NCBI GenBank assembly: GCA_021432605.1
Contig: MU271143.1
Span: 4,260,763-4,324,762, forward strand
Length of the DNA stretch: 64,000 bases
Source: Coniochaeta sp. PMI_546
Lineage: Eukaryota > Ascomycota > Sordariomycetes > Coniochaetales > Coniochaetaceae
Direction of reading: 5' to 3'
Position numbers and translations under genes: made by a program. A model generated the notes under the pieces. That model was not told the DNA's origin, did no database searches, and was given only the letters and a program-made list of their open reading frames with translations. How positions within the stretch are numbered: the first letter of the stretch is position 1; each line of letters opens with the position of its first letter. Positions 34,540-61,499 of the stretch are shown in pieces.

Positions 34540-36913
34540 TCATCGTTGCTTAACCGGCGGTGCATGTTCATCTATGTTTTTCGCTGTCCAGCCTGCTTCA
34601 AACATCTGGCCAGAGAACCAAAGTGGCTGGTCGGGTCTGTCGCTCATCTGGGCGATATGGACGTCGTGCGCTGTCAGATAAGGTTTCTTAGCCGTGGACG
34701 TTCCTTAACACTGTAGAAGTAAAGAGGTATCGGCATGGCTGAGGGGATATGAACAAGACGCACCGTCTTCTTGGATCTTGTATACGAGCGTCTTAACAAA
34801 GGCGACCTCCTCGGCACTCAGCTCGGCCATGGACTGCGCCGACGGACACGACCAGTCAAAGTCCTTTTGAAAGGGAACCCCACCTTTGCAAGCGTGGTGA
34901 AAATGTGCTAGGAGGTTCTTAGCCCCCTCGTTTAACTTCTGTACGCGGCCCGCGTCTGCATATCGCGTCTGTCGCTGGTTGTCAGACGCCCAGTACTCCA
35001 GTATGTTACCAGGAAAATCGAGGAGGCTAGTAACTCACAGGGTAATTGCGCTTCCGCGTCCATGAGAGCTCGTGGGTAAAAGCAAGCTCGTATCCTTGGA
35101 GGAGGACAAAAATGACAAGGAAGATGTGGAACCAGTTTTTGGTCCGGTTGGCTAGTACCATCTCCTCGAGTTCCTTGAGGATGCGGCCCTGTAGTGGCTT
35201 CAGAACGCGTTCCATAACGACGGCCGCTATTTGGAAGTCGATATAGGGTGGAGGGGCAATGAGGGAGGGTGGATTAAGTGGGTCAGGAAGCTTGTCGGCA
35301 TTGAGAGTCTCGGATCCGCAGCATTGCCAACCGCCCTCTATGAATCGTGCTGCGACCCAAAACTGTAAAAGGCTGCGGAAGAGGGCTTTCCTCTGGTGTT
35401 GTATGTAGAGTTAGCAAGTCGGGTACTCAATTAGTACCTTACGTAACGCAGGAGGGAGTGAGATCATGTAGACACGCACCTCGCATCGAGAAGTTGTATT
35501 ACAGTTTCTAGCGGCACCGATCACCAGACGAGTAATTTCGTCGAACTCCTGGAGGTAATGATCGAGATATACATCCAAACTTTCTTCTAGGTATGTGCGT
35601 ACCGAGGAGAGGGCTTCTTCGGCATTCGTCAACGCCCACGGCACAGCGTAGATGCTTCGGCCTCTGGAGTCGACCCCGTTAATATCATTTGGCGGGGCCT
35701 TAAATTCGCGTACCCTGAGGTGCAGAACAGTTCCGTAGCCCTGTGTCAGGTCGAGTATCTTGATCGGCGAATCAGCTGCCCACGTCTTCGGTTTATGGAA
35801 GTCGCCGTATTCTGGACCTGTAAGTTGTGGCGCAACAAATGAAGGTGAATGGTTGTTTGTCCGATATAGTGAACTGTCGACAATCTTATATCTGAAGCAA
35901 GGTATCCGGCTAACACTAAGTATGGCCCTCTGGCATGTCAAGCACGGCGCTTCTGGATCTCGGTTTAAAGGGTCTGGAAAACACTGCACCTGAGTTAGCG
36001 TTTTACTTTCTTTTGTCAGGGTTTTCTCGCTCTCAGTTCCCGGTTGGGAAAGTTAAGAACATTAGTACTGTGTGCAGAAACTTCAGAGTCTTACTCTTTT
36101 TCTTTTCTGACGGCACTGTATGCATCCTCGTATCCTCCTTGTAACAGTGGTGTCGTGGCGATCTGCAGGGTTGAGGCTCCTACGTTTAGGAGCCGGCTCT
36201 CGAGTTCGGGATGCGCGCCTATTTCGGCCTCTCGCCCTTCCGGGTACCTCAGACCATGTCGCCCCCCGTATAGATGAGGCCCCTTGTAAATGAGCGGTTT
36301 GGTTGACATCGCCCTCGTCAGGAAAAGATGTTGTGAGAAGGTAGCTAGTATGTGCGGTCGGTTCGACATCCGTGAAAGCGGCAAGGGAATGACCGGCAGA
36401 AGAGAACTTCAACAGATCATTGGGTTGACACTGAGTGCCAACGGAATAAGCTGATGAGGCTGGCCAGGGATTATCTATCTCGTCGGAGGCTAAGGTGCGG
36501 TACACGCTTGGGAACCAGGGGGAGAAAACGGCGCTACCTGGTTGGGCAGCAGGCTCCAGCTCACATGGCATTGTTACATTCACACCATGTTCAACCGTGT
36601 CGCTTAGCAAGGACAAATCAATCGGGTCATTCAGAAGAGATAAATCGAAAAGTTCGGGATTGTTTGCGATCGAAAACCCAAGGGCCTGCGATGCCGAATT
36701 TGTCGCATCGGTAGGAAGTAGATCGCCGTTGTGTGCTGACTGGGCGTATCCTTGCCGCTGTGGTGCATGGTTTGACCCGGAAAACGTGTCGACGCTTGGG
36801 GCAGCGTCCCCACAGGGCTCTAAGAGACTCAGTACAGGAACACCTAAGTCTAGTATATTCGCGGCATTCAGGACGGTCTCCCACTCGTCGTCGGTAAGCG
36901 GGGCGTGATCCAT
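34540..36913 (-). CDS. Zn(II)-cluster transcription factor with an internal, widely spaced Cys6 motif
   Basis: 681-aa regulator in five exons: 36095-36913, 35480-35989, 35039-35392, 34764-34995 and 34540-34670; introns of 105, 87, 43 and 93 bp, all in frame. The N-terminal 250 residues are acidic/Ser-rich and probably an activation region. A basic stretch (about 235-260) leads to six cysteines at 264, 267, 276, 289, 292 and 304, spacing wider than the canonical cluster but typical of one fungal C6 subfamily, followed by FRYKIVDSSLYR. The first intron splits the cluster after the third basic block. Downstream come ALFRSLLQFWVAARFIE, a hydrophobic helix ILFVI-like region, LNEGAKNLLAHFHHA and a C-terminal LWFSGQMFEAGW motif. 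The 43-bp intron is the least certain junction. Target genes are unknown. Confidence 0.85.
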
Positions 36914-38600
36914 TTTGCTGAGGATGGTATGATTCAATTCGAGGATCCCTAACCGATGTGGTCGGCCGAGCTGTCCTAACACTGATGGTCTCCTCGACCA
37001 TCAAATATAGACAAGCCGCGAGGCCTCATCGCAGTAAGCTCGGGCACCAACAGCTGCGGAGGAGTCGCAAATTCTTGCCTAATCAGGTTTTCGACGTTGA
37101 CCAGGGTGGCCGATGAAGGAAGTTGGCGGGCACTAGCCTAGAGTTACAGGGGCCACCGATGAGAGAAGATGGAGGGACGGGTTGGTGGCTGATTGGACTG
37201 GCCCAGCGCGGGAACTTCTGTCACCCAGTCCATATTTCCGCTGGTTAATCTACTACGCAGTACAATCTCGTCTCGCATCCCATCGTCACACTCATCGGTC
37301 CAGTCGCCGGAGGTTATATCGAACTGAAGATGGCTTCATCGTTCTTTCGGCCTTCTAGACTTAGTTCGTCTGGGATGGACCTCTCGTTCCAGAGCGGATG
37401 GCCTGCCCGAGAGGAAGACAAAATGACAGAGACTTGAGAGATCAGTAGGTATTTATAAGTCTAGTGGAAGCTCTGTAAATGTGTTCCGCGCAAATACATA
37501 GCAAAGAGTAGAAATCCAAGTGCCAGCACCAACGATGGAAAAGGATTGCCTTCAGACCGTGATCCGGCTTGAGGATACATCCGCTTGGTGTCCCAATTAT
37601 GAGAAGCCATACACTACATTGATCGCGAACAATGGTACGCTCCTCGTTACACCTAGCATTCATTCTCTGAAGTCTTTGATGCTAATCAAAGCGTACGCAG
37701 ATTTTTATGGTCAGTGGCCTGCCGCACGTGTGCTGGACACTACCTCTAGGGAACACAGTCGGTCATCGTCCCTTCATGTGGCCATTGCCTCGGAGACAGA
37801 TACCGAGGACTGCGGCAAACAGTCTGCCTTGGGCCCCTCTTCGACAAAGGCGGAAAATAGATAGCTTTAGGAACGGCATAATCCAATGCCATACTATAAA
37901 CTAAAGCAGGTTTGGAATTATGGAGGTATAGAAAGACAACAAAGATGTAGAAATTAATCGAGGGCTCAGAACTCACACAAGTGGTCGTATAACGCCATAA
38001 TACGGGCGATCACAGTTTTGCACCACCACCAGACACTCACCGCACATGTGATTGTGCAAATCTGTGAGTTGATAGATTGCAGACAACTTAGATGCAGAGA
38101 ATCGACGGTGTTATGGTGACAGAATGACGTTACAGCTCCTACTCCGCGCATACCCCTGGGCTTACCTGGGTACTCGGCTTCCTGATATGTCATCTGCAGC
38201 CGGTCTTTGCAAAATCCCGGATAGACGTCCTCCGCCTGACTCCCTTTCTTCTAATCGCCTTCATCATCTTCTACGGAGTCGAGGAGCGGGTTCCGTTCCC
38301 CGGGACTATCTGCCTGCTCCAGAATGCCAGCGCTGCTATGCCACCGCGTCCCCAGATCGCGTCCATATGTCTGTCTTCGAGGCTCTGTGCAAGACCGATC
38401 CCGCCTAGCGGCACCTCGCCACCGTGCGAGGCTGGTACCCGTGCAAATTAAGACAAAATCAACTTGAAAACTTAGGTCTGTTCAACACAAACATTACCAC
38501 ACACAAAACACACAGCAAATACTAGGTAGCAAGGGATATATCAAGCTGTAAAAGAAACCAGCCGCTCCACAGACGCAGACAACGTCTTGTGCACGGTATC
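36914..38600. other. Gene-poor 1.7-kb region
   Basis: Contains the promoter of the minus-strand regulator and the 3' flank of the NCS1 permease gene. An ATG frame of about 108 codons at 37538-37864 shows no recognised domain. Near 37,300 one frame reads VTLIGPVAGGYIE, faintly like an MFS antiporter motif, but it is too short to call. No RNA gene seen. Confidence 0.45.
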
Positions 38601-40777
38601 TTAGACTTTATCATCAATGACAACCACCTGCTCATTATCTTCCATCGACGGTGGCTGACCGTTCAGCGACTCAGTCTCGGATAGGAACGGCAGGTCGACG
38701 CCGAGGCCAGACACGGGAGAGAAGTAGTTCAGGGCCAGGAACACGACAAAGCTGATAGCCAGGCCGACGAGGAAGGTGAGGTTGTACAGGCGGGTCCAGT
38801 TGGTCCAGTTGGGCCCGGTGTACGCATTGACAGAGGCAGCCAGACCGGCTATAAGGTTGGTAAGAACTCAATCGATACTTGACAAGTGACAAAGGAGAGG
38901 AACATACGCAGAAGAGGCCACACGCCGGAAAAGAAGGCAACGAAGGCGCGCCAGTTAAAGCCGTGGCTGAACCAGTAGTGGGAGCTGGAATCGCCAATGT
39001 ACAGCTCGTTGACACGGAGCTTGTGCTTCCGGAGAACGTGGTAGTCGGCAAGCATAACGCCCCTGGTTTGTTAGTAAACATAATAGAAAAGGCGCGGAGA
39101 CAATTGTCAGACTGTGTCAAAAACTTACGTTGCAGGAGCCATGAAGACACCGAAGCCGCTGAGCACGGACAGGAACTTGGTCGCAGTGCTGATGAGCTGC
39201 CATGGTCTAGGGACATGTTAGAGGAGTAGCTCTTGTTTGACAGGTGTACGAGGGTTAGAGAGAACATACTGGACGGCGATACCGATGCAGGCCATGATGT
39301 AGCTGCCGCGCACAATGTTGATATACTTGGGACTCAGACCAGCCATGTCCATGCCAGTGGAGACGGAGTTGAGAACTACGGAGATCTGACCAGGGAAAGT
39401 ATCAACAACTGTATCTCCAAAAGAGTAACCTCGGTACGACTTACGGAGAACTGGGACGCAGCACAACCAAGTGCGCCAAAGAAGACACCGGCGCGTGCAC
39501 CAGAACTCGAGTGATAGTACTCCTGGATATCTGCCAAGAGGTAGATGGGATTCCAGACAAGGTCACCTCCTAGGATGTCGTGTGAGGCACTGGTGACAAT
39601 AATGCCAATAGCTGCCGTGACAGTGATGGTGAGAGGAGCAGCAAGTAGCTGCGACAAGGTCGGAGCAAAGCGGCGATCGGCATAACGTGTCCAGTCGGAC
39701 TGGCCCAGTGTGCCGGCACCCCACGCGCCGAGAATGGCAGTGATGCCAAACATGAAGCTCCAGCCGATGTTGTCGGCGGTACCTGGTTCGTGAAACATAC
39801 TGCCAATGCCGCCGGCCTGTGAAACACTCCATGCCAGGCAGCCAAAGGCCGAGCCAGCAAAGAGAACGAAGCAGAGGACGAAAGGTTTCTGCAGCTTCTC
39901 TGGCTTAATCAGAACGCCGGGGATAAAGGCAGCCATCCAGATGACCAGACCAATAAAATCTTTGGTCTCAAGATGTGCTCCCTTGGCAAAGTGGTTGTTC
40001 ATGTGTGCGAGTCCTGGAATCATGGCACCAAACATGACACGAGTGGCCTGGCCACCCCAGAAAGCCTGCATGCCGAACCACATGCAAGCAACAAAAATAC
40101 GAAGAATAACCGGGACTGTGCGCCTTGTCAGCTTGTGGTATGTGGGAATGTCACAAGTTGCACATATACAGTTAACTCACAGTAGGCACCGCGCATGCCC
40201 CATGCCGAACGGCTTGATACAGTGAAGCCGATGTGGTGAACCTCGCCCAGCCAGCCGCAGGCGACAGCCAGGAAGCCGGTAAGAATACCCCCGATAGCCT
40301 GGGTATAATCAGCAACCTAGCTATCATAAGCGGAATCGGAAATCATGGCTTAACTCACAACCGTACCAATGGCCTGCTGGGGGCTGAGACCATATGACAG
40401 AAGGGTGCTACCGGTTGACCAGGCCGAGATGCACGAACCAGAGACAGTCCAGTAGCCTGGAAGACAGCATCTTGAGTATACCATCAACTGAACACAGCGT
40501 AAGGGATACATAATACGCACCAAAGTATGACCAGATGCCGTAAGTACGACGGTCAGGCGGGATGGGAATCAAGTCCCGGTTACACCACGTGGTGTTTTCG
40601 TAGTTGGAGTTCTCATCCTTAGGCCTGAAGTAATTCTGTTAGGCATACATTACTTCCATGTTAGGATGCAGAAAATATGTCCACAAGATGACGAATGTAC
40701 AGAGTAATGAAGATCACACATATGGGGTGAACTCACACTTCAAGCCGTTTCTTGATCGTCGGCCAGTCGAGCCCCAT
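38601..40777 (-). CDS. NCS1-family permease (nucleobase/hydantoin/allantoin/thiamine-type symporter)
   Basis: 542-aa plasma-membrane cation symporter. Nine exons: 40737-40777, 40521-40624, 40359-40456, 40181-40298, 39445-40115, 39270-39385, 39129-39206, 38908-39062 and 38601-38848; all phases agree. The N-terminus has KKRLEVP then CNRDLIPIPPDRRTYG, followed by SGSCISAWSTGSTLLSYGLSPQQAI (helix 1, substrate region), FFGALGCAASQF, SVVLNSVSTGMDMAGLSPKYIN and WRAFVAFFSGVWPLLPGL, all standard NCS1 landmarks; about 12 spans. The C-terminal tail is acidic and cytosolic. It is divergent to an aldo-keto reductase and close to a hydantoinase fusion; bacterial Mhp1 of this family imports hydantoins, so an amide-ring substrate is a reasonable inference. 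Confidence 0.93.
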
Positions 40778-41503
40778 TTTCGGTCTATTTGACAGTGTCG
40801 TAGGGACAGAGTCGGTGAGATGGCAAACAGAAACCAGCTGCGAAGAGCAACAGAGTTGGTGGCAGCTTTGATAAATCGGCGAGTCGAAGAAACCGTGCAA
40901 GAACAGCGCTCCTTCGGTGGGGTACTGAGGAGAAGCCGACGACCTTTTATGTAACTTTGTTTATCATCGCCAGTCTGCCGAGTCTGATTAGATAGACCAG
41001 GTTGGCTGACCGCTGTGGTACAGAAGAGGTACCAATAAAACGAGGCGTCGAACTATCTCTCACCATGCTGTACTACAACTTGATTGTGTTTCTCGTGCTG
41101 GTATCTTTATCACGCTCCCTTTTCTATCGTGTCACCCAATTTTGGTTACACGCTTTGGGGCCTGTCTCTATCCTTGAAAATAGGACATGCTTATCTGAAG
41201 TACGTTGTGTGACCCACAGTCTATCTTGCACTACCTGCATCCGCGTGGAAGTTGGCCGATCTCGGTAGACTCCACCCGGATGGTTGACCTAGCTTGTAAG
41301 TGCGAGATGGAGCTGTCTTCGGTCAACTAGACCACACGCACTAATAGCCGATAGCATGTGGACAAGACCTGCCCGACTGTTTATTTGCATAGATCTGCAT
41401 ATAGAATAAAGTTATTGATTGTGCAGCCCAAGGCTATTGCTCCCGCTGTTTGGGGAGCTTTCTCAATCTAATCCAACTTTCCACACTACCGACAAAGTTC
41501 ACA
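40778..41503. promoter_or_regulatory. Divergent promoter between NCS1 permease and aldo-keto reductase genes
   Basis: About 726 bp between head-to-head starts. A TAACGAT search by eye gave no hit here, unlike the regulator promoter at 46.5-46.9 kb. No coding frame supported. Confidence 0.5.
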
Positions 41504-42648
41504 ATGTCAAAGACGTCTTTCCCCCTCAACAACGGGCTTTCCATCCCGGCCGTTGGTCTCGGCACCTGGCAGTCCAAGCCCAAGGAGGTGCAGGATGCCG
41601 TCAAGTTTGCCATCCAGCATGGTTACCGGCACATTGATACTGCCCTCAACTATGGCAACGAAAAGGACGTTGGCGAGGGTATCCGCGCGTCGGGTGTGCC
41701 CCGCGGAGATATATGGGTGACGACCAAGCTGGATAACCCATGGCACCACCGGGTGGCAGAGGGTTTTGCTAAGTCTTTGGGTGACCTCGATATTGGCTAC
41801 ATTGACTTATACCTGATGCACTTTCCTTGCTCGACTGATCCCGAAGACAGTACGAAGCATCTCCCTGACTGGGACTACGTCAAGACATGGCAGGAAATGC
41901 AAAAACTGCTGGATACAGGGAAGGTTAAGTCCATTGGCGTGTCTAACTTTCAGATTCGCCATCTTGAGAAGCTCTTGGCCGACCCCTCCTGCAAGATCGT
42001 GCCGGCCGTCAACCAGATTGAGGTAAGTCACCACAATATACTACCACGGCTGTAAGGTCATGTGAATGGTTCAACTAATTTGGTAACATAGCTTCATCCC
42101 AGTAATCCGTCGTATGTGTCGTTTCCTCTGTCATCTTGCAACAAAGCATCAAAAAAGGAAAAAAAAAAGAAAGAAAAGTACACAATCTACGGCAATCTGA
42201 CGCGCAGATAATTAGACCTAAGCTCCTCGACTACTGCAAATCCAAGGGCATCCACTGCATGGCCTACTCCTGCCTCGGTGGCACGATTGGCTCACCCATC
42301 AACAACTCTGGTCCCCTCCTGGAAGATCCAGCTATTTTCGAAGTTGCCACGGCCAAGGATAAGACGCCCCAGCAGGTTGTGTAAGTTTCAATACTGAACT
42401 GTAAGAGTCTCGGGTGACAAAAAACGCAGACTAATAAAGCTTGGAACAGTCTGATGTGGGGTCTCCTGCGTGGCACCAGCATCATCCCCAAGAGCATTAC
42501 TCCCTCTCGCATTGCGCAGAACTTTGAACTGGATGGTTGGACGATGACGCCAGAAGAGATCAAGAAGATCAGTGGCGTGCAGACACGCTTCAAGGTGGTG
42601 GAAGACAGCTGGATGCCCATCAAGGTGTTCTTTGGTGACGACGAATAG
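41504..42648 (+). CDS. Aldo-keto reductase
   Basis: 300-aa NADPH-dependent (beta/alpha)8 oxidoreductase reducing aldehydes or ketones. Exons 41504-42022, 42092-42111 (only 20 nt), 42216-42380 and 42450-42648. The 20-nt exon restores QIELHPSNPSPKLLDYCKSKG, matching the family. The catalytic tetrad positions are seen as Asp/Tyr in HIDTALNYGNE, Lys in TTKLDNPW and His in LMHFP; cofactor motifs are GVSNFQIRHL and IIPKSITPSRIAQNF. Length fits the AKR superfamily (about 300-320). Divergent from the NCS1 permease and convergent with the hydantoinase fusion, so it probably processes a carbonyl intermediate of the same pathway. Confidence 0.93.
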
Positions 42649-42881
42649 CGCAGGATGTATATAGCTTTACCACAAACACAATTTGAATCGCAAATCTAAG
42701 ACTCCAAGAACGAGCAAAAGCAAGACACAATTACGGAGAGACAAAGTTAATAGAATTCCACTTATACAGCACAAGGAACTACTTCTAGAGCATGTAGCCG
42801 GAAATATATCAGAATCAGTATATATATTACTTTGAACATGGTGCCTACAGATAACCATTTGTGTAACTATCAAACTAAAAT

Positions 42882-45800
42882 TCACTGGTCGTACTCATCA
42901 ATGACACTGACGGGCTTGACGTACGAGCCCAGCGGAGAAAATTTGAGATGGTTAAAGCCAAAACCCTTCGGGCCGCCGATATCGATGCCGCGCTGGGTGC
43001 CAGTCCACCGATCACTTGCTGCAATACCAATGACAATTACCAGCAGGCCATACCTGTAATCCTGAGTGCCGATAGCTTCGCCACTCTGCGCATCAATCAC
43101 GGAGATGAGGTCAGGCACCAGTGCAATAACATCGTCCTGCGTCTCAGTAGGCTTGCCAGAACCAGCCAGGTCTTTATCACCAGTGTAGTCCTCAGGCACA
43201 CAAATGACGCCAATGTTCTCGTTCTTAAACGGAATTTTAACACGGCCAACAAACTCCTGCTTCTCCGTACCGGTGGGAACGAGAGCATTGGACTCGACGG
43301 CGCCTGCAACCTCACCGCCCTCAATAATACATTCACCGTAGATGTGGCCCGTGCGAAGGGTACGCTGGACACCGACAATTTTGCCCTTCCAGAGCACTCT
43401 CGCGCTCTTCGCACCGCCGCACTCGTCAATGATGGACTCGGCAACAGAGTCGACACGGTTGTTCCGGCGAGCACGGTCAACGGCACGGCCGATGCGCCAT
43501 GCCTGTGAGATGGTATGCTGAACAGCCCATCGCTTGGTCTCGTCACCAGTCACAGGACCTTCGGCACATCCTGTGTGGGAACCCATTTGACTAAGGGCTG
43601 CACGCATGACGTTCTCCGCCTGGAGGTCGGACTTGGCGCTGGTCATGGTCACCACGTTTCCGTTGCCATCGCTCATCGCGATAGGGCACCACACCGGCGA
43701 CCGCTCATTGAAGACAACTGGTGTCGTCTGCCACTTGGTGGGATACGCGCGGCCCATCCAGTCGGCATCCACAACAGGCAGATCCATGATGGTGCTGGCG
43801 CCGAGGATCATGCTCTGGATTCCATTTCCACCACCAATCTCAATTGAGATCATGTGCGTAGGGCCGGAGCCGCCTTCTAGCTTGACCATTTTAGCCAACT
43901 CGTATTGAGCGCCCTGCATCTCGTCGGCTGGGAGCTTCTCGATGCCAACAGATGGTGATCCCATACCACCTCCAGTGTACACAGATGCGTTTTCTTCCAG
44001 GTCGTCTGGGTTGACAACACGGACAACGGCGCCATTACGGAGCATCTCACGCATTCGGATCATGTGTGGGTATGACGAGCCACCACCGCCGGTGCCAAGG
44101 ATATAGCATCCAGAAGCAATCCAGTATAAGTCGGTCTCGTTGACGAACCATTCGCGGTTGCGGACAGTGGGGCGGTATGTGTTAATGTCCACAGACAAGG
44201 GTCCCTTGTCCGGAACGGGCTTCTCTCCATTGGCTTCCGACGCAAGATTGGCTGTTTTCTCGTACTCATCCATACTCGCACTGCTGTCACACTCGGAGTC
44301 ATCTTCCCTTGCTGCCAGGCTGGTAGACGATTCCGATAATGAAACACGGCTGTAGTCAAAATCTCCTGCCGCACGAACAATGAAGCGTGACTTATTGGAG
44401 ACGTACTGCAATGGCAGGGTTTCCATCTCGACAATCTTGACCGTCTCTTTGGATGCACCGGCAGTAACAGTGCGCTCAACTACATCTGCACAGATAGTGT
44501 TGAGAAGGTCCGAGGCCGTGGTACCCTCGGTAGACTTGACGGTGTCGATAACAGCGCTGACACGAGCAATTGCAGCACCGATGGCGTTCGCAACACCGGC
44601 CCACCGAGGTTTGATCACACGACTAGCACCGAGAAGTGTATCCGGGGCGATAACAGCGCCACCACCCACAAGTAGAACCGGGAGATCTGCTGGTGAAGTC
44701 TTCATTGTGTCAATGATCTTTTCGAGTTTCTGTCGGATGATCACCTGGCATTCGGCGAGCTCAGCCTCAGTGAGCCTTCCCTGGACCAGAGAGCTGTCTC
44801 CAATTTCAGTTGCGGCACCAGACAGAACTGTACAGTCGGTTGTTGTCATGACATCCCCCCCGAAAACAACGGCCTCCCTTGTGAGCTTGTAGCCAACACT
44901 GTCAGGACCGACAGTTATGCGTGAATCGGGTGCTGACGTATTCCGCCTAACGATGGAGCCACCGCCAAGACCGATGCTTTTAATGTCGGGGCATGAGAAG
45001 TTCATGCGGACTCCAGCAAGATCACTGTAGGCGGCCTGCTGGCGGGGGAAGCCGTTTGCTTGCAACAATCCGACATCGGACGTGGTGCCGCCAATGTCGA
45101 CGACCATAATGGCCTCGTCAAGACCGTCATTGCCCACCAGAAACGCTGCACCGCGCATACTGTTTGTAGGGCCGCTGGAGAATGTCCGGATGGGGAGTCG
45201 TGCTGCCATATCACCCGACATGATGGTGCCGTCATTCTGAGTTATAAAGACCGGGCACTTGAGCCCGAGCTTCTGTACCGGATCCTGGAAGGAACGGATG
45301 GTCCTGCGAGCAAACGACAGAATAGCTGCGTTGAGTATGGCTGCATTCTCCCGCTCCACGAACCCCAAGTTCGCAACCTCTTTGGATAGAACAATGTCAC
45401 ATCCAGCTGGCATGGCATCGCGCACGATATCAGCTGCACGTTCTTCCTGGCGCTGGACTGTGTCGATGGGGCTGAATACGCCACAAATGACAACGCTCTT
45501 AATGTTCTTGGCGGCGATCGCCGCGCACTCTGCCCGGATAGCTGACTCGTCGATATCGCCAATCAGAGATCCGTCGACCTCGAGACCGCCGGGGAGGAGT
45601 GCATAGTGCCGCAGGACCAGCTCGCGCATGTCATCAGGCCAGTCAATGCACGGAGGTGAGTGCTTAGAGAAGGGGCCACACAGTCTCAACACCGCGACAG
45701 GCGACAAGCGGCGAGCATCACGCTCCACAACGGCGTTGACAAAGTGTGTTGTGCCAATCGTGACGCTAGCGACATCTTCAGCGGCCACACCAGCCGACGC

Positions 45801-45977
45801 CATCATCGTGGTAATCGCTTCACTGATGCCGTGGCTGGGGTTGGTTGTTGTCGGTGCTTTGTGCCATGCAACAATACCCTTGTCCGTCTCATGAGCGCGG
45901 GTAGGGTCGAGGATGACACCATCTGTATTGGTGCCGCCGACATCGACGCCGACACGTAAACGACTCGGAGAGGCCAT
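42882..45977 (-). CDS. Hydantoinase/oxoprolinase (HyuA-type) fused to a DUF917 domain
   Basis: 1031-aa intronless protein. Residues about 7-180 form the HyuA_N domain starting VGVDVGGTNTDGV, an ASKHA-type phosphate-1 loop; about 200-500 is the hydantoinase A/oxoprolinase core with VVDIGGTTSDVG, LGGGSIV and VLLVGGGAVIAP. A Ser/Glu-rich linker (about 560-610) joins a C-terminal DUF917 domain (about 620-1020), beginning REWFVNETDLYWIASGCYILGTGGGGS. The HyuB half of classical 5-oxoprolinase is absent. Known relatives hydrolyse cyclic amides (hydantoins, 5-oxoproline) with ATP. The gene lies between an aldo-keto reductase and a divergently read regulator. It is most likely cytosolic, opening the ring of whatever the NCS1 permease imports; that pairing is inferred. 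Confidence 0.95.
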   Translation of the reverse strand: MASPSRLRVGVDVGGTNTDGVILDPTRAHETDKGIVAWHKAPTTTNPSHGISEAITTMMASAGVAAEDVASVTIGTTHFVNAVVERDARRLSPVAVLRLCGPFSKHSPPCIDWPDDMRELVLRHYALLPGGLEVDGSLIGDIDESAIRAECAAIAAKNIKSVVICGVFSPIDTVQRQEERAADIVRDAMPAGCDIVLSKEVANLGFVERENAAILNAAILSFARRTIRSFQDPVQKLGLKCPVFITQNDGTIMSGDMAARLPIRTFSSGPTNSMRGAAFLVGNDGLDEAIMVVDIGGTTSDVGLLQANGFPRQQAAYSDLAGVRMNFSCPDIKSIGLGGGSIVRRNTSAPDSRITVGPDSVGYKLTREAVVFGGDVMTTTDCTVLSGAATEIGDSSLVQGRLTEAELAECQVIIRQKLEKIIDTMKTSPADLPVLLVGGGAVIAPDTLLGASRVIKPRWAGVANAIGAAIARVSAVIDTVKSTEGTTASDLLNTICADVVERTVTAGASKETVKIVEMETLPLQYVSNKSRFIVRAAGDFDYSRVSLSESSTSLAAREDDSECDSSASMDEYEKTANLASEANGEKPVPDKGPLSVDINTYRPTVRNREWFVNETDLYWIASGCYILGTGGGGSSYPHMIRMREMLRNGAVVRVVNPDDLEENASVYTGGGMGSPSVGIEKLPADEMQGAQYELAKMVKLEGGSGPTHMISIEIGGGNGIQSMILGASTIMDLPVVDADWMGRAYPTKWQTTPVVFNERSPVWCPIAMSDGNGNVVTMTSAKSDLQAENVMRAALSQMGSHTGCAEGPVTGDETKRWAVQHTISQAWRIGRAVDRARRNNRVDSVAESIIDECGGAKSARVLWKGKIVGVQRTLRTGHIYGECIIEGGEVAGAVESNALVPTGTEKQEFVGRVKIPFKNENIGVICVPEDYTGDKDLAGSGKPTETQDDVIALVPDLISVIDAQSGEAIGTQDYRYGLLVIVIGIAASDRWTGTQRGIDIGGPKGFGFNHLKFSPLGSYVKPVSVIDEYDQ

Positions 45978-47087
45978 TGTGTTTTGTTTCAGTGTTCTTG
46001 TCGCCGTATGATGCTCGAGTGCGGTCGTGGTATTTGCTGAACTTCGTTGTCGAGATTGCCGAATATTACGGAAATATGTACAAGAAATCTAATTAAAGGT
46101 GAAGAAGATGCCACAGTCTATATGCAGCCTCGATAACAGGTATTTTTGGTGGGATGAATCGTATTGTGCAGTTGCCCGAAGGGTAAAGGGAGAAACAAAA
46201 CGACCCCCCCAGCACGTATCATGCCAGGGCGCCTTATCCATTGATTTAAGAAGAAGAAAAAAAAATATACGCCGGTCAAGTTGTTCGTCTTACGAGTTGA
46301 CACTTAGGAACACAAAGCCTTGTATCAATAACAAACCGATCATGTCTATTTTCGCCATCAGAAGCTTCAGAAGACTACAACACCCAACCATAGATCAACT
46401 TCGGCGAAAATTGCGAGACGCGACTCCAGTCAAGATAAGTGAACGGGCCCCATAAATATTGTTACTCCGAGGACGTTGTTTTGCAGTACAGTAAACCTTG
46501 TGCGTAACGATCAGAGACATAACGATATCCTAGGTATAATGATCAGACCCAAGCCTTACAAGGTAAATAACGATACTTTACCATGATTTGCATACTCATA
46601 CAGCAATACGTATCGGGATATTCTAAGCCGAAGGAGGCGGGGTTTCAGCCGCCACCCCCACATTGGCGCCAGTTTCCAGTCGGTCCAATGGGCTACAAAG
46701 TATTACCCGCCAAGCCCGCCATCTGTATTGCCAGCGATTTTGAAGCTACCGTCGATATGTCACAGCACTTGCGGCGCTGGCAGAAGGTTGGGTAAAGGCG
46801 TATTTGGGCAAGGACTGGCTGACTCTGCACTTGGCCCTATTTGGTCCCACTTTGACCAAAGCGATAATCTGCCCGGGTATAACGATCAACTAGTCGAACC
46901 CCGGGCTGATCGTTATGTAGAAGGTTTACCGTAGTGTGATTCCTGAAACCAAGCCTACAAGTACCGATGTGGGACTTATCTATGGCGTGCGGTTTGCCCC
47001 AGTTAGCCGAGTCGGTGACGAGGAACATGAAAAGGGTCATATCCACCATCGTCGGTCAACTTTCGACATTGGTCAACGAGAGAAATC
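45978..47087. promoter_or_regulatory. Divergent promoter region with repeated TAACGAT motifs
   Basis: 1.1 kb between the hydantoinase fusion (minus) and the Zn2Cys6 regulator (plus). TAACGAT occurs at 46505, 46520, 46568 and 46880 on the plus strand and at 46909-46915 on the minus. The last pair forms a perfect 10-bp inverted repeat, ATAACGATCA (46879-46888) and TGATCGTTAT (46907-46916), interleaved with GCCCGGG and CCCGGGC. A TAAGCCGAA site sits at 46624-46632. No coding frame supported. The layout suggests operators for a local or autoregulating factor. Confidence 0.55.
46879..46916. promoter_or_regulatory. Perfect 10-bp inverted repeat, candidate operator
   Basis: ATAACGATCA and its exact reverse complement are separated by 18 nt and overlap a pair of CCCGGG palindromes at 46872-46877 and 46900-46905. 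It lies about 170 bp before the regulator start. Dimeric Zn2Cys6 or other factors often bind inverted half-sites, but which factor would bind here is unknown. Confidence 0.45.
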
Positions 47088-49797
47088 ATGGTTAACACCA
47101 GCCAGAATAGCTCGCCCGCGTTGGTGAAACGGCGCAGGTTCCGCATCCAATCTAAGTTCGGCGAGCCTCGACAATGGCGCAGCCGCAAGAGCCGGCCCTG
47201 TGATGCATGCCGGCGAAGGAAGACTGCCTGCGTGATCGATCATCGCCCTCCATGTGGGTTTCCGAGGAATCTCTCTTCTGCTGACTGCTTGGCAGAGTAG
47301 ATGAATGAAGCTTATCAGAATGGTTTAGGTCGATATTGTGCAAGCAAAGGCCTCGAGTGTGTGGCAACGGCGCTCGATGTTGCTTCTGCTTCCGAACCCG
47401 GGTCTACGGCCGGATCATTAGCTACTAATACCAGAGCCGACAGATCCAGTACTTCGTCTCCGCAGCAACACGGGCAAGATGTTTCGATTCTGGTAGATAC
47501 CAACGAGGACTCCCTAGCAATTTCCCCGCTGCCAACATATCGGCCTTCTGTGCAGCACACATACCTCCCTTCGATCACTGTTCTAGCTGACGCAGCAGCC
47601 AGTCTTGCACATGCAGAGGTACACGCTGCCACTCTCTCACCGCCATGGTCTGTTACCGAAGTATCCCTTCCCGTACAGGCAGAAGCAACCGCGCTTCCAG
47701 AGGACGTACCTGCGTCGCCAGGCATTTCCGCGGAACTACCTGGCCCGCCTGTTACTGACGCAACTTCACCTGTTGAGTCGGTTCTCTCCGTGTCTGTCCG
47801 TGCCTCTCCTGCGGAAACTCCCACGGTTTCTGTTCCTAGGCCAGGCTCAAAATCAACTTCGGTAGCGACTTCTGCACCTGTGTCATCTGCTGTTCCGTCG
47901 TCCCTAGCAGCGCGCATCTATACACTGGAAGACAACCCCAAACGAACAGCACACTCAATGGGCCTAGCGGGCGAACAAGATGCCGAGCTGATGGTGTCAT
48001 TTCGGTCTTCAGTCATGAACGAAGCCAACCAAGTCGACGCAGATATCATGCAGGTCTATGCTGGTGACCTCGTGAGCAACCACCCACCTGTACACTTTAA
48101 TATGCTACACGACAGCTTTGCTCCTCAAGACAATGCCGCCAAGGATGCTGCCTCGGAGCGCATCGAAGCTGCTGTTTCTGGGAACGCCGATGAACTCGTG
48201 CGTCTATACTTTAGACACGTGCATCCAGTCTACCCTGTCCTGGCCAAGACGAGGTTTCTGCAGGTTTACTTTGGCGATTCGGACATTGAGGGAACAAGAG
48301 ACACTGTTTCTACCCCTGCAATATCGACTTGCGGAACACCTGAAAGCACTACTCGGGGAACTTCAGGCACTAGAGCTGGAAAGCTTTCTATACCAGCATC
48401 AGTGCGTGGTGTTGTCTATGGTCTGGCGTCCAACTTTTGGAAGCGAAACCAGGCCAACGCAGCTTTTCCGCTGAACCAGCACGAGCTTTTTGAGGATGCA
48501 CTTGCCTCGTTGCAGCGCGAGTTCCATGGACCAGATTTGTGGACTTTGCAGGCGTGTCTACTACTTCTCCACGAGAACTCTGCTGAAAACGCAACTATCG
48601 AGACACCGCGGGTATGGACCTTGACGGCACAGGCAGTTGCATGCGCACAGGTCATCGGTCTTCATCGGGATCCGACAAACTGGAGCATTGCACCATGGGA
48701 GAAAAGCCTCCGCAAGAAATTATGGTGGGCAACATTCGCTGCTGACGTGTGGTCGTCTGTCTGCCATGGCAATCCACCTCATATTTACCGTGAGAGTTTC
48801 ACGACACCCTTACTTACGATGGACGACCTCGCCATTGATGAAGATGTGCCACCCGCACTGGCGGGACGTATCCAATGCTTGGTTGATCAGGCCACAGTAC
48901 GTACGGACGTAGCAAAATGTGCGCGTTTCTTTCAGACTGTGGCCGTCAGCCGAATCGTACACGAGTTGCTGCATTCGTCTTTGTGAGTAGCATGCCCTGT
49001 TTGATAACACTTGCTTGATTGACGTATTAGCTTACCTTCTCTCCAGCTCTGACGTTGTGTATATAAAGTCGATGCAGGATCCTCTCGTTCGCGAGGCTGG
49101 GCTGCTGCAGATCCGGCAGAAATTGAAGGACTGGTCATCGCTTTTGCCACGGTGCCTCGACACAGGCTCTCTCGGCAGCGCCGTCCACAACAACGGTTCG
49201 TCGTTACCTAGGATATACACAATAAATTTATTTCACTCTGACACAACTTAGCACCTGTTCACCTGGGTTACTTTGCCGCTGTGACGCTCAATTTCCGCGC
49301 GCTGATGAGTCCCGTCACGAAAGCTGCGAAGCAAGATCCCCAATCAAGTCTGCGGCGACACTTTCGCTCCGCTATCAACGACTTCCGCCCATTTATCGAC
49401 TTCATGGACAATATATCGCCCCAATGCATGCATGCTTTCTGGGGATTGCGTAAGTCCACGTGGTATACTTTAGAGGGGAGCGGCTCTATCTGCATCAAAA
49501 GTATGAGCTGACACACGACAAACAGACGCCCGATCACAACTTATATTGTGTGGCAATTTCTTTATCTACTTGTTTTTACTTGCCCCGGACCCGGAGTACG
49601 TGCAGGACGCGTTTCAGCTACTCGGAAAATTTCATGACTCCTTGCAGCGCCTTAGTGCTGTGGCCGATAAGTATGCTATTAGCATACTGCGGCCTGTCGC
49701 TCTACGGATCGATTCGTTCTTTACTCAGGCAGCGCAAATCATGCGAACCGGCCAACGCGCAGAAACGGCGCCTATATCACCTCACTTGTCAAGATAG
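47088..49797 (+). CDS. Zn2Cys6 transcription factor, probable regulator of the adjacent hydantoinase-type cluster
   Basis: 812-aa nuclear regulator. Exons 47088-47253, 47329-48982, 49047-49195, 49252-49449 and 49526-49797, all in frame. The canonical zinc cluster uses C38, C41, C48, C56, C59 and C66, and is split by the first intron exactly in the codon of C56. A Ser/Thr/Pro/Ala-rich stretch (about 80-250) follows, then the fungal middle homology region with YFRHVHPVYPVLAKTRF, GLHRDPTNWSIAPWEKSLRKKLWWATFAAD and DVPPAL, an arrangement like the DAL81/TamA group of nitrogen-catabolism regulators, although orthology is not claimed. The C-terminus ends in a helix-rich segment with PEYVQDAFQLLGKFHDSLQ. 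Its position inside the five-gene group and the repeated motifs in its promoter suggest pathway-specific control. Confidence 0.9.
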
Positions 49798-50190
49798 GAG
49801 CAAAACTCTAGATACGGGCTGATGTTATTGGAGTATTGCCGGCCATACGGGTTATCGGACCTTTGTCGGCGAACAAGATTTCCAAGGGTATCTTGTGTGG
49901 CATCTCGGCCTACTTTTGATCGGCTAACTTTCATGCGCCCCTGTTGCTATCTCCCCGCATCTTATCACCCCGTCAGATTGCCGTGCTAACATTCGGCTTA
50001 ACCTCTTTAAGGAACATCGGCCAAAGTGTAGCCGAATGTAAGTGATCTATATACAGCGAGCGGCCCGCACTTTCAACAGACCATTGCGCCACTCTTGTTT
50101 CTATGCACTTATGCATCTACGCCATCTACTCCAATCATATCTACATCCATAGTCAAAGAAGGCAACCGCACCATATCCCTCACCTCGAAA
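49798..50190 (+). promoter_or_regulatory. Promoter region of the 2-oxoglutarate oxygenase gene with inverted ACATTCGGCT repeat
   Basis: 393 bp. A perfect 10-bp inverted repeat, ACATTCGGCT (49989-49998) and AGCCGAATGT (50030-50039), lies about 150-200 bp before the start codon, followed by a TATATA-like box near 50049. TTCGGCTTA from the first half also occurs, inverted, in the regulator/hydantoinase promoter at 46624-46632. Confidence 0.5.
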
Positions 50191-51285
50191 ATGTCTACTG
50201 CAGATCCGAGTCTCAGTATCCCCGTTGTTGACTTTGGCCCTTTTAGTAGTGGCCGCCGAGAGGATGTTGCTGCGGTCGGCAAAGCCCTGTACGAAGCATT
50301 CCGCGACTACGGCTTTGCTTATGTCTCAAATCATACGGTCCCTCACGATATTGTAGACGAGGCCTTTGCTTGGGTGAGTTCAAACCTATCAACGTCTGTG
50401 ATCAGTGCATACTTTTGACACAACACTAACACCGCTTTGCAGAGCGCGAAGTTCTTCGCCCTGCCACAGGCCGTCAAAGAAAAAGCTCCACATCCACCAT
50501 ATGGCTGGTGGCATCGCGGCTACAGCGGGGTCGGACGTGAGAAGGTTGTACAGATGGTGTACGACGAGGAAAGCATCGGCGAGCTCCGTAAGGTTCCAGA
50601 CTTTAAGGAGTCTTTCGAGATTGGCCGCGATGGACCAGACACAAAAACGCCCAATATTTGGATCCCAGATAAGGACTTGCCAGGATTCCGGGAGTTCTTC
50701 ACCCGATTCTTCGAGATCGGATATGATATGGAAGTGCAGATGCTCCGCGCTATTGCTATCGGCATGGAGCTCCCCGAGGAGTTCTTCCTTGGGTACCACC
50801 AAAGAAAAGACAACCAGATCAGACTGCTTCATTACCCTCCTGTACAGGAGTCCTTGCTGACCGATGGCAAGATGGAGCGCATTGCTAGTCACACTGACTT
50901 TGGGACGATGACTATGCTTTTCCAAGACAGTGTTGGTGGTCTCGAAGTGGAGGACATCCACGAGAAGGGCAAATTCAATCCCGCGCCTTACATCCCGGGC
51001 ACGATTGTTGTCAACATCGGAGACTTCTTGCAGCGCTGGAGCAACGACCACTTGCGCTCAACACTACATCGCGTACGTGCCCCGCCAGTGGACGAGACGA
51101 CGCAAGGAATACATGGCGCACAGAGAATAACGCGTGCTAGGTACTCTATCCCGTACTTTGTCACAGCGGACCACGAAAAGGTGATTGATACGCTTCCTGG
51201 CTGCTTCAACGAGAGCAACCCCAAGAAGTATGAGCCAATCAACAGTGGCGAGTACATTTCGCGGCGGCTGAACGCGACATACTAA
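50191..51285 (+). CDS. 2-oxoglutarate/Fe(II)-dependent oxygenase (isopenicillin N synthase-like)
   Basis: 341-aa cytosolic oxygenase in two exons, 50191-50373 and 50443-51285. The DIOX_N region (about 10-130) begins IPVVDFGPF and includes YGFAYVSNH. The double-stranded beta-helix core holds the facial triad His211, Asp213 (ASHTDFG) and His270 (STLHRV), plus Arg294 and Ser296 (RYSIPYF) for 2-oxoglutarate. Length matches the family (320-350). Relatives hydroxylate or oxidatively cleave small molecules, including pyrimidines and xanthine-like rings. It is the last gene before a RIP-saturated repeat block and its promoter shares a motif with the cluster regulator promoter, so it probably belongs to the same pathway. 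Confidence 0.93.
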
Positions 51286-52379
51286 GGTTATATAACAACG
51301 AGTTAATATTATAAAGTTGTAGATATATAAGTAGTAATCCTTTATTATTTAAAGATATTAATTTAATTTTAGTAAAGTATTTTTCTTTTAGATATAATTT
51401 TATAATTATTATTATATTATTATTCTTTAATAACGTAGATATTTTAATAAGTTTTAACTTTAAGTTTTAATTATAAGTTTATATCGTAAGTTTCTTATTT
51501 TAACTTCCGGTAAACCTTACCTTTTCGACTTTTTTTATATTAACGCTTTTATTCCTTAATCGACTTTATTAATTAAAATAATTAGTATAAATACGAATGT
51601 ATTAAGATAATATTTTTCGATAATTATCCGGCTTTTATTTCTACTTTTATTAGATACTTTTAAGCTTAAGCTTTACGGTAAAGTAAAAGAAATATTTATA
51701 AGTCTCTTTTATTTTTATTAGTTCTATCTAAAAATATTACGAAAACGGGAAAAGTTTTGTTTTATAAGGTAGAATTTAAATAGTTCGAATAATAAATAAT
51801 ATATAAGTAGTTTAACGTTTTTTTTTTTTTTTTTATCTTACTAACTTTTTTTTAATTAAAATCTAATATTTCTAAACTTATTAACAAAACTAAATAAATT
51901 TATCAATTAATAATTCTAAGATATATATTTAATTAAAAGTTAAATTATTATATATAATTATTATAGGTTTCGTATTATATTTTTTATAAATAATATATTA
52001 AATTCTAATATCTTAATTTTTTTTTTTATTTTTTATTAGAAATATAAAATTAAACTTATTTTCGACCGAAAACTTTTTTTTTCGTAAATATAAAACAATA
52101 AATATCTCGTTATCTTTATAAACCGGGATTTTAAAAAAATATCTTTTAGGTTTTTTTTACGTTTTTATTTTATTTTTATTTTTAACCGTTTATACCGGAA
52201 CCGAAAAACTTTAGTTTAATAATTTATCTTGTTCGGGTTTATTTTTTAAAATCGAATTATTATTTAGTTTTTTCTTAATTAAATACCGCGATATATTTAT
52301 AAAAGATCGCGTTTTCGACTAAATATTTATTCTTTTATTATATATAAAAACCGAGTTTTAAAACTTATAAAAAATATCG

Positions 52380-52830
52380 TATTTCGAATAATTATAAGAA
52401 GAAATATTTAATATTATATTTATCTTATACCTTATTATTTATTAATAAGAAAAACGTTAGTTACGGTAAACTAAAAAGGAAATAGTTTTAATACCGTATT
52501 TATTTTATATTTCGTTATTTATTAATAAGAAAAGTATTAATTACGGTAAGTTAAGAAAGAGGTAATCTTAATACCGTACTTATCTTATATTTCGTTATTT
52601 GTTAATAAGAATAAACTTAATTATAGTAAGCCGGAAAAGAAGAAGTATTTAATACCGTAATTACTTCGTATATCGTTATTAGTTAATAAAAAGAACGTTA
52701 GTTACGGTAAGTTAAAAAGGAAACAATATTAATACCGTACTTACTTTATACCTTATTATTTATTAATAAAAATAGATTTGGTTACGGTAAGTTAGGAAAA
52801 AAAAAGTAGAATAAATACCGGCGTTATACC
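52380..52830. repeat. Tandem array, about 80-bp unit, main block
   Basis: TTAATAA-containing units recur at about 52441, 52521, 52601, 52682 and 52762, a steady spacing of 80-81 bp. Each copy follows the same order: a TTATTTATTAATAAGAA-like core, then GTTACGGTAAGTTA-like, a purine-rich tract and AATACCGTA. Copies differ mainly by transitions, as expected after RIP. Confidence 0.8.
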
Positions 52831-53059
52831 TACCTTATATATAAAGATCATACTTATCCGTACTTATTTTATATTAAAAAACTTATATTTATTCTTATAT
52901 TATATACGTAAACTAAGTTTTAAAGTTTATAAGAGATATCGTATTTCGAATAACTATAAGAGGTAATAATTCTAATACTTACTTATTACCGAAGTTTTTA
53001 ATAACTTAATCTTTATATACCTTTATATTTTAAAAGTTATTATAAAGTTTATCGTTTTC

Positions 53060-53210
53060 TAAAACTTATTATTTATTAACAAAAAAGGCTTTAGCCGTAA
53101 TAAGTTAGGAAGGAAGTAATACTAATATTATACGTATCTTATACCTCGTTATTTATTAATAAGAAAAGATTTAGTTATAATAAGTTAAGAAAAAAGAGAT
53201 AGAATAAATA
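53060..53210. repeat. Tandem array, about 80-bp unit, second block
   Basis: Two further copies of the same unit, with TTATTTATTAA cores at about 53077 and 53157, again 80 bp apart, separated from the main block by about 230 bp of other sequence. Confidence 0.7.
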
Positions 53211-53383
53211 CCGGCGTTTATACGATATATTTCTTACCGTTATACTAAGAGTCGGTTATTTATTAACCGCCTTTTTTACCTAAGGTTATTTTTTAAAGCC
53301 GTACCGCCGTTTTATTTCTTATTAACTACCGTCTTTACCGTTCTACCGTACTTATATTACGAAACCGTCCCGAACTTATTATA

Positions 53384-53640
53384 TTATAACGATCTAAGAC
53401 GGGGTTTAAGATCAAAAGGTAAGTTCTATTATTTAGAGTAAGTGAGTTAAGGTATAACAAACAATCTTTACTTTGGTATCGTTAAGATAAATATCTTATT
53501 CAAATAATAACCTCAATTAAATATTTAGATTGATTATTAGGTAATTAAGAATTATCTATAACGGAATCCCGAGAGATTCTTTCTTATATATTAATAGAGA
53601 TTATAATAATCATTATGATAGTTATAATCATACCGACCGT
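53384..53640 (-). repeat. Partial LTR in inverted orientation
   Basis: Reading the minus strand from 53640 to 53384 gives the same order of motifs as the two LTRs of the chromovirus: GATTCCGTTATA, TTCTTAATTACCTAATAATC, a run ending CTTACCTTTTGATC-like and CCCGTCTTAG. The outer half of the LTR is not clearly recognisable. This is a solo or truncated copy of the same family. Confidence 0.7.
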
Positions 53641-54755: not shown

Positions 54756-55151
54756 TGTTACGAACCTATAGGTAATAAAGGGTTCCCTACCAATAGATAA
54801 GGAATATATATGCGGAGGGCTTATCGTACTATATAGGATAAGGGACCCCGGGTCACGTGACTGATAGGTACGATAGCCGTCTATTAGGGCTATTATTAAT
54901 ATTCCGGATAGCTATCTATTATAGCTATTACTATAGTTTCTATAAATATATAAGGAAGAATCTCTTTAGATTCCGTTATAAATAGTTCTTAATTACCTAA
55001 TGATCAATCTAAGTATTCAATCGAGGTTATGATTAAATAAGATACTTATCTTAACGATACTAAAGTAAAGATTACTTGTTATACTTTAACTTATTTACCT
55101 TAAATAATAAAATTTACCTTTTGATCTTTAGCCCGTCTTAGGATTATTATA
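54756..55151 (+). repeat. Left LTR
   Basis: About 396 bp starting TGTTACGAAC and ending near CTTAGGATTATTATA. It aligns along its full length with the right LTR, including the landmark GGGACCCCGGGTCACGTGAC-like core and the ATTCCGGATAGCTATC stretch. Confidence 0.85.
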
Positions 55152-55299
55152 TTTTGATTATTCTTATTCGGTAAGTTAACCCTATACCAAGTAGTTAATA
55201 TAGTACCTAGTATACCTATACCTTAATAAACAACCGTAACTTAGACGTAGGCTAACGATATAGTAATAATAATTACGTAACTATAAGTAAAAATAGCGG

Positions 55300-61495: not shown

Positions 61496-61499
61496 GAGG

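What the first reader, a model, noticed from the sequence alone, without database searches (positions are those of the whole stretch)
38601..51285. Candidate catabolic cluster for a hydantoin- or nucleobase-like compound
NCS1 permease, aldo-keto reductase, hydantoinase/oxoprolinase-DUF917 fusion, Zn2Cys6 regulator and 2-oxoglutarate oxygenase are packed in 12.7 kb with two divergent promoters. NCS1 includes the hydantoin importer Mhp1, and hydantoinases open such rings. A dedicated fungal pathway with this five-gene composition is not one I know as characterised.
Basis: partly seen in the sequence, partly recalled or inferred. Interest (0 to 1): 0.75.

Follow-up and report, generated by a model that had tools for sequence, protein, structure and literature searches.

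The report
Fungal cyclic-amide breakdown gene cluster
A small group of neighbouring fungal genes looks built to import a ring-shaped nitrogen compound and break it open for food, using an enzyme whose two halves are separate neighbouring genes in bacteria; the compound itself is not yet known.

Summary
The genome matches Coniochaeta sp. PMI_546. The catabolic reading is partly supported. NCS1 and oxygenase homologues share 18 contigs between two 120-row lists, five pairs with locus tags one or two apart. A second HyuA-DUF917 gene in this genome also has an NCS1 neighbour. In bacteria HyuA and DUF917 are neighbouring genes; 5 of 16 neighbourhoods read have an adjacent NCS1 permease, 10 an ABC importer. 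The permease keeps Mhp1's hydantoin-binding Trp/Gln/Asn. The oxygenase is a paralogue of thymine 7-hydroxylase; a closer T7H candidate lies elsewhere in the genome. An ergothioneine route is unlikely. Gene trees put the window's HYD and NCS1 next to Ophiostoma- and Sporothrix-type relatives, 31 kb from a telomere, so horizontal transfer is plausible. Substrate and co-regulation are unproven; linkage of AKR and regulator elsewhere was not tested.

The parts
38601..40777 (-). NCS1 nucleobase:cation symporter (Fur-like by recalled resemblance), 9 exons, 545 aa
   Evidence: Spliced; PF02133 285.6 bits; Mhp1 Trp117/Gln121/Asn318 correspond to W136/Q140/N353
40778..41503 (.). Divergent intergenic stretch of NCS1 and AKR, 726 bp
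   Evidence: Between the models; no 8-, 9- or 10-mer is shared by all three intergenic stretches
41504..42648 (+). Aldo-keto reductase, 4 exons, 300 aa
   Evidence: Spliced; PF00248; best solved chains are AKR4-1, aldose reductases and AKR4-2
42882..45977 (-). HyuA-DUF917 fusion (HYD), 1031 aa, single exon: short HyuA ATPase half (about 1-540) and S-Me-THD-like (DUF917) half (about 600-1031)
45978..47087 (.). Divergent intergenic stretch of HYD and regulator, 1110 bp
   Evidence: Between models; holds all 3 copies of TAACGATCA in the window, 0.63 expected, 2 of 100 shuffles reach 3
47088..49797 (+). Zn2Cys6 transcription factor, 5 exons, 812 aa
   Evidence: Spliced; PF04082 85 bits; other genes of the genome match only in part, at 21-51% identity
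50191..51285 (+). 2-oxoglutarate/Fe(II) oxygenase, paralogue of thymine 7-hydroxylase, 2 exons, 341 aa
   Evidence: Spliced; 42% identical to Neurospora T7H (134 of 322 aligned), Fe and 2OG ligands kept, Asn87 to His85, Tyr217 to Phe214, Asn294 to Thr302

Best explanation
A catabolic gene cluster for a cyclic amide or ureide (hydantoin-, pyrimidine- or lactam-type ring). NCS1 imports the ring. The T7H-like oxygenase oxidises a substituent or ring carbon. The AKR handles the aldehyde or ketone so made. The HyuA half phosphorylates a ring carbonyl with ATP, and the DUF917 half, standing where HyuB stands in oxoprolinases, completes ring opening, giving an open-chain amide or ureide as a nitrogen source. 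The Zn2Cys6 protein switches the genes on. Shown here: gene content, kept motifs, repeated linkage of NCS1 with the oxygenase and with HyuA-DUF917. Inferred: order of steps, chemistry, regulation, substrate.
Against: No expression, growth or enzyme data. Linkage of HYD to the other two genes outside this genome rests on shared contigs of 0.68-4.3 Mb in three species. On different contigs: HYD and NCS1 in Ophiostoma piceae and Neonectria punicea; HYD and oxygenase in Thelonectria olida, Trichoderma arundinaceum, T. ceciliae, Purpureocillium lavendulum and P. takamizusanense. The third HyuA-DUF917 gene of this genome (C8) has no NCS1 match on its contig. 10 of 16 bacterial neighbourhoods use an ABC importer instead, two of them annotated as dipeptide type, so the ligand class is wide; the 16 were picked from top rows and several are close kin. 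The bacterial NCS1-linked operons form a clade without the fungal fusions. No motif common to the three promoters. The window NCS1 misses the NCBIfam NCS1 cut-off (331.9 against 353.1) and both allantoin permease cut-offs.
Confidence: 0.62

Rival explanations
1. Pyrimidine (thymine) salvage: the oxygenase acts as a thymine 7-hydroxylase and the permease imports thymine or uracil; HYD and AKR are chance neighbours.
For: Best solved relative is Neurospora thymine dioxygenase. Phe292, Arg190, Glu122 and the metal and 2OG ligands are kept. In NcT7H, Y217F barely affects thymine activity, N87A does not severely impair it and N294A does not affect activity (PMC4787775, passages), so the three replaced residues do not exclude thymine.
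Against: Asn87, which hydrogen-bonds thymine O2, is His in 15 of 16 family members aligned (the sixteenth, P0149, lacks the stretch), so the pocket differs as a family trait. Another gene, C3:857482, is 78% identical to NcT7H over 278 aligned residues and keeps Asn87 and Tyr217, so the T7H role seems taken.
Confidence: 0.14
2. Sulfur-heterocycle breakdown: the DUF917 half is a thiohydantoin or S-methyl-thiohydantoin desulfurase, as in bacterial ergothioneine degradation (that pathway is recalled).
For: Pfam now calls DUF917 S-Me-THD-like; NCBIfam models of both desulfurases match weakly.
Against: Scores are about a tenth of the cut-offs (46.3 against 450, 40.2 against 440 bits); no urocanase-family match in the genome, which that pathway needs (recalled).
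Confidence: 0.06
3. A detoxification or secondary-metabolite tailoring cluster rather than nutrient catabolism.
For: The oxygenase also matches UcsF at 5.1e-41; one relative of the permease is named aclS (that aclS belongs to the aspirochlorine cluster is recalled); subtelomeric place.
Against: The longest open frame in the window is the 1068-codon HYD frame, so no large PKS- or NRPS-like open frame (introns not modelled, and a backbone gene outside the window is possible); bacterial relatives of the enzyme sit beside importers.
Confidence: 0.15
4. Unrelated genes brought together near a telomere by chance; no pathway.
For: Subtelomeric, beside an AT-rich RIP-like tract; AKR and regulator linkage elsewhere untested.
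Against: Recurrent NCS1-oxygenase and NCS1-HyuA-DUF917 linkage; similar nearest kin in the trees of three genes.
Confidence: 0.08

Closest known systems
Bacterial HyuA + DUF917 operons with an NCS1 cytosine permease (Lactiplantibacillus NZ_OX443574, Geobacillus NC_014916, Limosilactobacillus NZ_CP128359, Pediococcus NZ_CP085176, Streptomycetaceae CP108401)
   Same: Same two enzyme parts beside an annotated NCS1 importer
   Different: Separate genes; by product names no 2OG oxygenase or AKR in the stretches read; PucR, Fis or helix-turn-helix regulators where one is annotated; the fungal fusions form a separate clade. My searches found no paper that characterises these operons
ATP-dependent N-methylhydantoinase, 5-oxoprolinase, caprolactamase (HyuA/HyuB)
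   Same: HyuA ATPase half (PF05378, PF01968; PDB 7hk5 and 6yra)
   Different: No HyuB domain among the Pfam hits; only profile positions 1-175 of 291 of PF01968 match; DUF917 takes the second place
Thymine 7-hydroxylase (Neurospora, PDB 5c3p)
   Same: Family, Fe and 2OG ligands, Phe/Arg/Glu of the pocket
   Different: Asn87 to His, Tyr217 to Phe, Asn294 to Thr; a closer T7H candidate is elsewhere in the genome
Fungal Fur-type NCS1 transporters and bacterial Mhp1
   Same: Trp/Gln/Asn ligand triad
   Different: Substrate unknown; below the NCBIfam cut-offs of both allantoin transporter models
Aspergillus nicotinate (hxn) cluster
   Same: Also holds a T7H-like oxygenase (HxnY) and a cyclic-imide ring opener (HxnM) (PMC9304392, passages)
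   Different: The paper relates HxnM to cyclic imide hydrolases and a peptidoglycan-deacetylase-like protein, not to HyuA; MFS rather than NCS1 importers (recalled)

Membership tests
NCS1 symporters | PF02133 over the whole profile | tested here: met
   285.6 bits against 23.5, profile 1-440 of 440
NCS1 symporters | Trp/Gln/Asn ligand residues of Mhp1 | tested here: met
   W136, Q140, N353; 13 of 13 rows, the window's included
NCBIfam NCS1 and allantoin permease models | Curated cut-off | tested here: not met
   TIGR00800 331.9 against 353.1; NF008476 164.1 against 620; NF047713 127.5 against 800
HyuA/HyuB hydantoinase-oxoprolinase | HyuA ATPase domains | tested here: met
   PF05378 109.3 bits, PF01968 108.3 bits; most motif residues the same in 21 of 21 rows
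HyuA/HyuB hydantoinase-oxoprolinase | HyuB half or partner | tested here: not met
   Not among the five Pfam hits of the protein; a separate HyuB gene elsewhere in the genome was not sought
Thiohydantoin or S-methyl-thiohydantoin desulfurase | NCBIfam equivalog cut-off | tested here: not met
   40.2 against 440 and 46.3 against 450 bits
DUF917 (S-Me-THD-like) | PF06032 and PF20906 | tested here: met
   177.6 and 210.6 bits; fold match to 2o3i, E 3.2e-12, on a model of mean pLDDT 62.8
Thymine 7-hydroxylase | Thymine pocket of NcT7H (Asn87, Tyr217, Phe292, Arg190, Glu122, Asn294) | tested here: inconclusive
   Phe, Arg and Glu kept; Asn87 is His, Tyr217 Phe, Asn294 Thr; single mutants at these three are tolerated for thymine in NcT7H; a gene 78% identical to NcT7H lies on C3
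Aldo-keto reductase | PF00248 | tested here: met
   145.6 bits
Zn2Cys6 regulator | Six-cysteine cluster plus fungal TF domain | tested here: met
   Cx2Cx6Cx7Cx2Cx6C in the spliced product; PF04082 85 bits; the zinc-cluster Pfam model itself was not run on the spliced N-terminus
Nutrient-catabolism cluster | Co-induction by its substrate | not testable with these tools
   No expression data

The most novel reading that the evidence does not exclude
A new fungal nitrogen pathway in which a T7H paralogue demethylates or hydroxylates a hydantoin- or pyrimidine-like ring and a new kind of two-domain ATP-dependent ring opener (HyuA with DUF917 in place of HyuB) breaks it, moved as a block between orders of fungi.
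Probability: 0.3. Interest if true: 0.72.

Novelty: new variant of a known kind. Interest (0 to 1): 0.52.

Why it matters
HyuA-DUF917 proteins are widespread: 2,677 proteins match the fusion at E <= 0.001 among 7,992 scored, and all 120 listed carry the HyuA and DUF917 domains; 117 of 794 matching plasmid records cover at least 80% of it. Yet a 2024 paper states that DUF917 proteins had not been experimentally characterised (PMC11055893, passage). A single-polypeptide fungal version with a likely importer, oxygenase and regulator beside it is a tractable place to find the substrate and to ask whether DUF917 can replace HyuB. The gene trees also make it a test case for horizontal spread of a catabolic block in fungi.

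Tried and rejected
Ergothioneine or thiohydantoin route: disfavoured by NCBIfam cut-offs and no urocanase-family match. Thymine salvage: not the main reading, but not excluded, because the replaced residues are tolerated singly in NcT7H; on re-reading that passage I raised this rival slightly and changed its membership row to inconclusive. A promoter motif common to the three intergenic stretches: none of 8-10 bases. A transposon reading of the inverted pair 46484-46514/46906-46936: no second copy found in the genome, left unexplained. Bacterial source of the NCS1-linked arrangement: the fungal fusions do not group with the NCS1-linked bacterial operons. The GTDB contig scan with the fusion alignment gave one locus, 33% identity in its best segment, not followed. 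The AlphaFold model is weak (mean pLDDT 62.8) and serves only as support for domain assignment. Literature: searches found no paper on this five-gene composition in the held open-access library; subscription papers are not covered. Of the papers fetched I saw passages only: PMC11055893, PMC4787775, PMC9304392, PMC12735256, PMC5737690, PMC10788122, PMC4195764, PMC12915319 and PMC6061476. [quoted passage not shown] I could not tell whether they are DUF917 fusions. PMC5737690 reports hydantoinase B/oxoprolinase among genes unique to Geosmithia morbida; not followed. No Rfam match at the gathering score and no tRNA gene in the window. Only the best 120 homologues per gene are shown, which limits the linkage counts. 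Sporothrix eucalyptigena was dropped from the linkage lists because its HYD and oxygenase rows come from different strains.
Full report
What is there. The five genes are present, intact and at the stated coordinates. Strands are NCS1 (-), AKR (+), HYD (-), regulator (+), oxygenase (+): two divergent pairs, AKR and HYD convergent with 233 bp between them, and the oxygenase downstream of the regulator. The genome is most likely that of Coniochaeta sp. PMI_546: homologues of that name (P0109, P0121, P0241) list contigs of 2,357,440 and 4,343,278 bases, which are the lengths of contigs C8 and C1 (the window's) of the own genome.

The ring opener. The 1031-residue protein joins a short HyuA ATPase (PF05378, PF01968) to DUF917, now PF06032 and PF20906. 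It has no HyuB hit. It lies far below the NCBIfam cut-offs for caprolactamase alpha (88.3 against 1000) and for the two thiohydantoin desulfurases. All 120 listed homologues carry both parts. In bacteria the two parts are neighbouring genes. In one search, 794 plasmid records match and 117 hold one place covering at least 80% of the query; in the spread sample of 60 only the top 9 rows span both halves, so most of the lower matches are to HyuA alone. Over 16 bacterial rows (from 15 loci; the pair of H6 was left out) and 5 fungal rows, most HyuA phosphate-motif residues and a set of DUF917 acidic, Asn and Arg residues are invariant, which suggests that both halves are catalytically live. By analogy with oxoprolinase and caprolactamase, where the alpha subunit phosphorylates the lactim and the beta subunit has a role in its hydrolysis (PMC6061476, passages), I infer that DUF917 does the second step here. 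This is inference.

Neighbourhoods of the bacterial pair. I read 16, chosen from the top rows and from the top of the spread list, so they are not a random sample, and some are close kin (H1 with H6; H11, H13 and H20). An annotated cytosine permease (NCS1) lies directly beside the pair in 5 (H14 Streptomycetaceae, H46 Geobacillus, H47 Lactiplantibacillus, H48 Limosilactobacillus, H49 Pediococcus), ABC importer genes in 10 and a TonB receptor in 1. Five of 16 have an Asp/Glu-type racemase (H11, H13, H20, H26, H44) and one an AroM protein (H45). The pair thus goes with importers and often racemases, as expected for a salvage route for chiral cyclic amides. PMC11055893 (passage) likewise reports hydantoin racemases, DUF917 and AroM proteins enriched in some cyclodipeptide-oxidase clusters and predicts hydantoinase activity for DUF917.

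The permease. It belongs to NCS1 and keeps the Trp, Gln and Asn that bind the hydantoin ring in Mhp1. PMC4195764 (passage) notes that the equivalent residues also matter in fungal FcyB and plant PLUTO, so this fits a planar amide ring in general, not hydantoin alone. The A. [quoted passage not shown]

The oxygenase. It is 42% identical to Neurospora T7H (134 of 322 aligned). The Fe and 2OG ligands, Phe292, Arg190 and Glu122 are kept; Tyr217, Asn87 and Asn294 are Phe, His and Thr. In NcT7H the single changes Y217F, N87A and N294A leave thymine activity largely intact, though N87A strongly reduces the later oxidations (PMC4787775, passages), so these replacements do not by themselves exclude thymine. 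His85 holds in 15 of 16 family members aligned; the sixteenth, from Grosmannia, lacks that stretch. The own genome carries a gene on C3 whose main open frame is 78% identical to NcT7H over 278 residues and keeps Asn87 and Tyr217. The window's enzyme is therefore a separate paralogue and thymine is probably not its substrate.

Linkage in fungi. No fungal assemblies could be fetched, so I used the contig length printed for each homologue as a fingerprint. Between the 120 oxygenase rows and the 120 NCS1 rows 18 contig lengths are shared, the window's own included. The organism names agree, as far as printed, in 16; in the other two (528257 and 4162385) one name was cut at the genus or named a congener. 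Short ones include Amylocystis (21 kb), a Cordyceps (45 kb) and Ophiocordyceps unilateralis (50 kb); Dacryopinax, Meredithblackwellia and Amylocystis are basidiomycetes (recalled). Five pairs have locus tags one or two apart. HYD, NCS1 and oxygenase share a contig in 3 cases (own, Sporothrix schenckii 4.3 Mb, Niveomyces 0.68 Mb), and HYD with oxygenase also in Grosmannia (1.06 Mb). Against this, HYD and NCS1 lie on different contigs in Ophiostoma piceae and Neonectria punicea, and HYD and oxygenase in Thelonectria olida, Trichoderma arundinaceum, T. ceciliae, Purpureocillium lavendulum and P. takamizusanense; some of those HYD rows may correspond to the resident (C8-type) paralogue. The NCS1-oxygenase couple is therefore wide, while HYD is seen with it in a narrower set.

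Linkage in this genome. There are three HyuA-DUF917 genes. The window's and the C16 copy each lie beside an NCS1 gene; the C8 copy lies beside an extended SDR-type reductase. Of 12 NCS1 loci 3 have a T7H-like oxygenase match within 12 kb (window, C7, C12). Random placement reaches these counts in 16 of 200,000 and 12 of 20,000 trials, with the caveats given in the observation check.

Origin. The trees use rows that I picked: 40 of 120 HYD rows plus C16, 17 HYD, 34 of 120 oxygenase and 31 of 120 NCS1 rows, 16 NCS1. The window HYD groups with Ophiostoma, Grosmannia, Sporothrix and Niveomyces, not with the resident C8 paralogue; a tree that holds window, its nearest metagenome kin and C8 together is rejected (AU p 3.8e-10). 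The window NCS1 is sister to that of Ophiostoma piceae (92% identical), with Sporothrix next; holding Ophiostoma and Sporothrix together without the window is rejected (p 4.7e-7). The oxygenase pairs with Sporothrix with modest support (86) in a set of 9 that also holds Grosmannia, Niveomyces, Geosmithia and Phialemonium. NCBI places Ophiostoma in Ophiostomatales but Niveomyces and Geosmithia in Hypocreales and Phialemonium in Cephalothecales, so the group is mixed. The block ends about 31 kb from a TTAGGG telomere and abuts a RIP-like AT-rich tract. Horizontal transfer is the simplest reading; I infer the direction (into Coniochaeta) from the nesting. No other named Coniochaeta was in the trees, so old paralogy is not excluded.

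Verdict. The cluster is real and the catabolic reading is the best supported, but the ring that is eaten is unknown. Each protein family is known; the combination and the DUF917 ring opener are uncharacterised as far as my searches of the open-access library show.

Noticed in passing
window 51290-62500: AT-rich tract (GC about 0.20-0.40 per kb, low (CA+TG)/(AC+GT)) that looks like RIP-mutated repeat DNA, starting right after the oxygenase stop codon.
   Followed up: partly
window 46484-46936: A 31-base imperfect inverted pair (84%) encloses 391 bases of the HYD/regulator intergenic stretch, with TA dinucleotides near both ends, like a small transposon remnant; no second copy found in the genome.
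   Followed up: partly
window about 35000-37000 (-): A possible second zinc-cluster regulator (reads GCIQCRQKRKR) just outside the cluster; no Pfam hit in the two open pieces scanned.
   Followed up: no
own genome C16:586489-592901 (L022): A paralogous HyuA-DUF917 gene divergently beside another NCS1 gene, about 45 kb from the contig end: a second candidate cluster.
   Followed up: partly
own genome C7:317420-321062 (L026, L027): An NCS1 gene with a 2OG oxygenase gene as direct divergent neighbour, a different subfamily pair.
   Followed up: partly
L043, L044, L045, L046, L049, L053: Bacterial loci with two DUF917 genes beside HyuA, two of them (L046, L053) with two HyuA genes, which suggests heteromeric enzymes or two substrates.
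   Followed up: no
window 28659-31192: PIG-L deacetylase and DXD glycosyltransferase genes next to a nucleotide-sugar transporter (26902-28131), a separate sugar-related group upstream.
   Followed up: no
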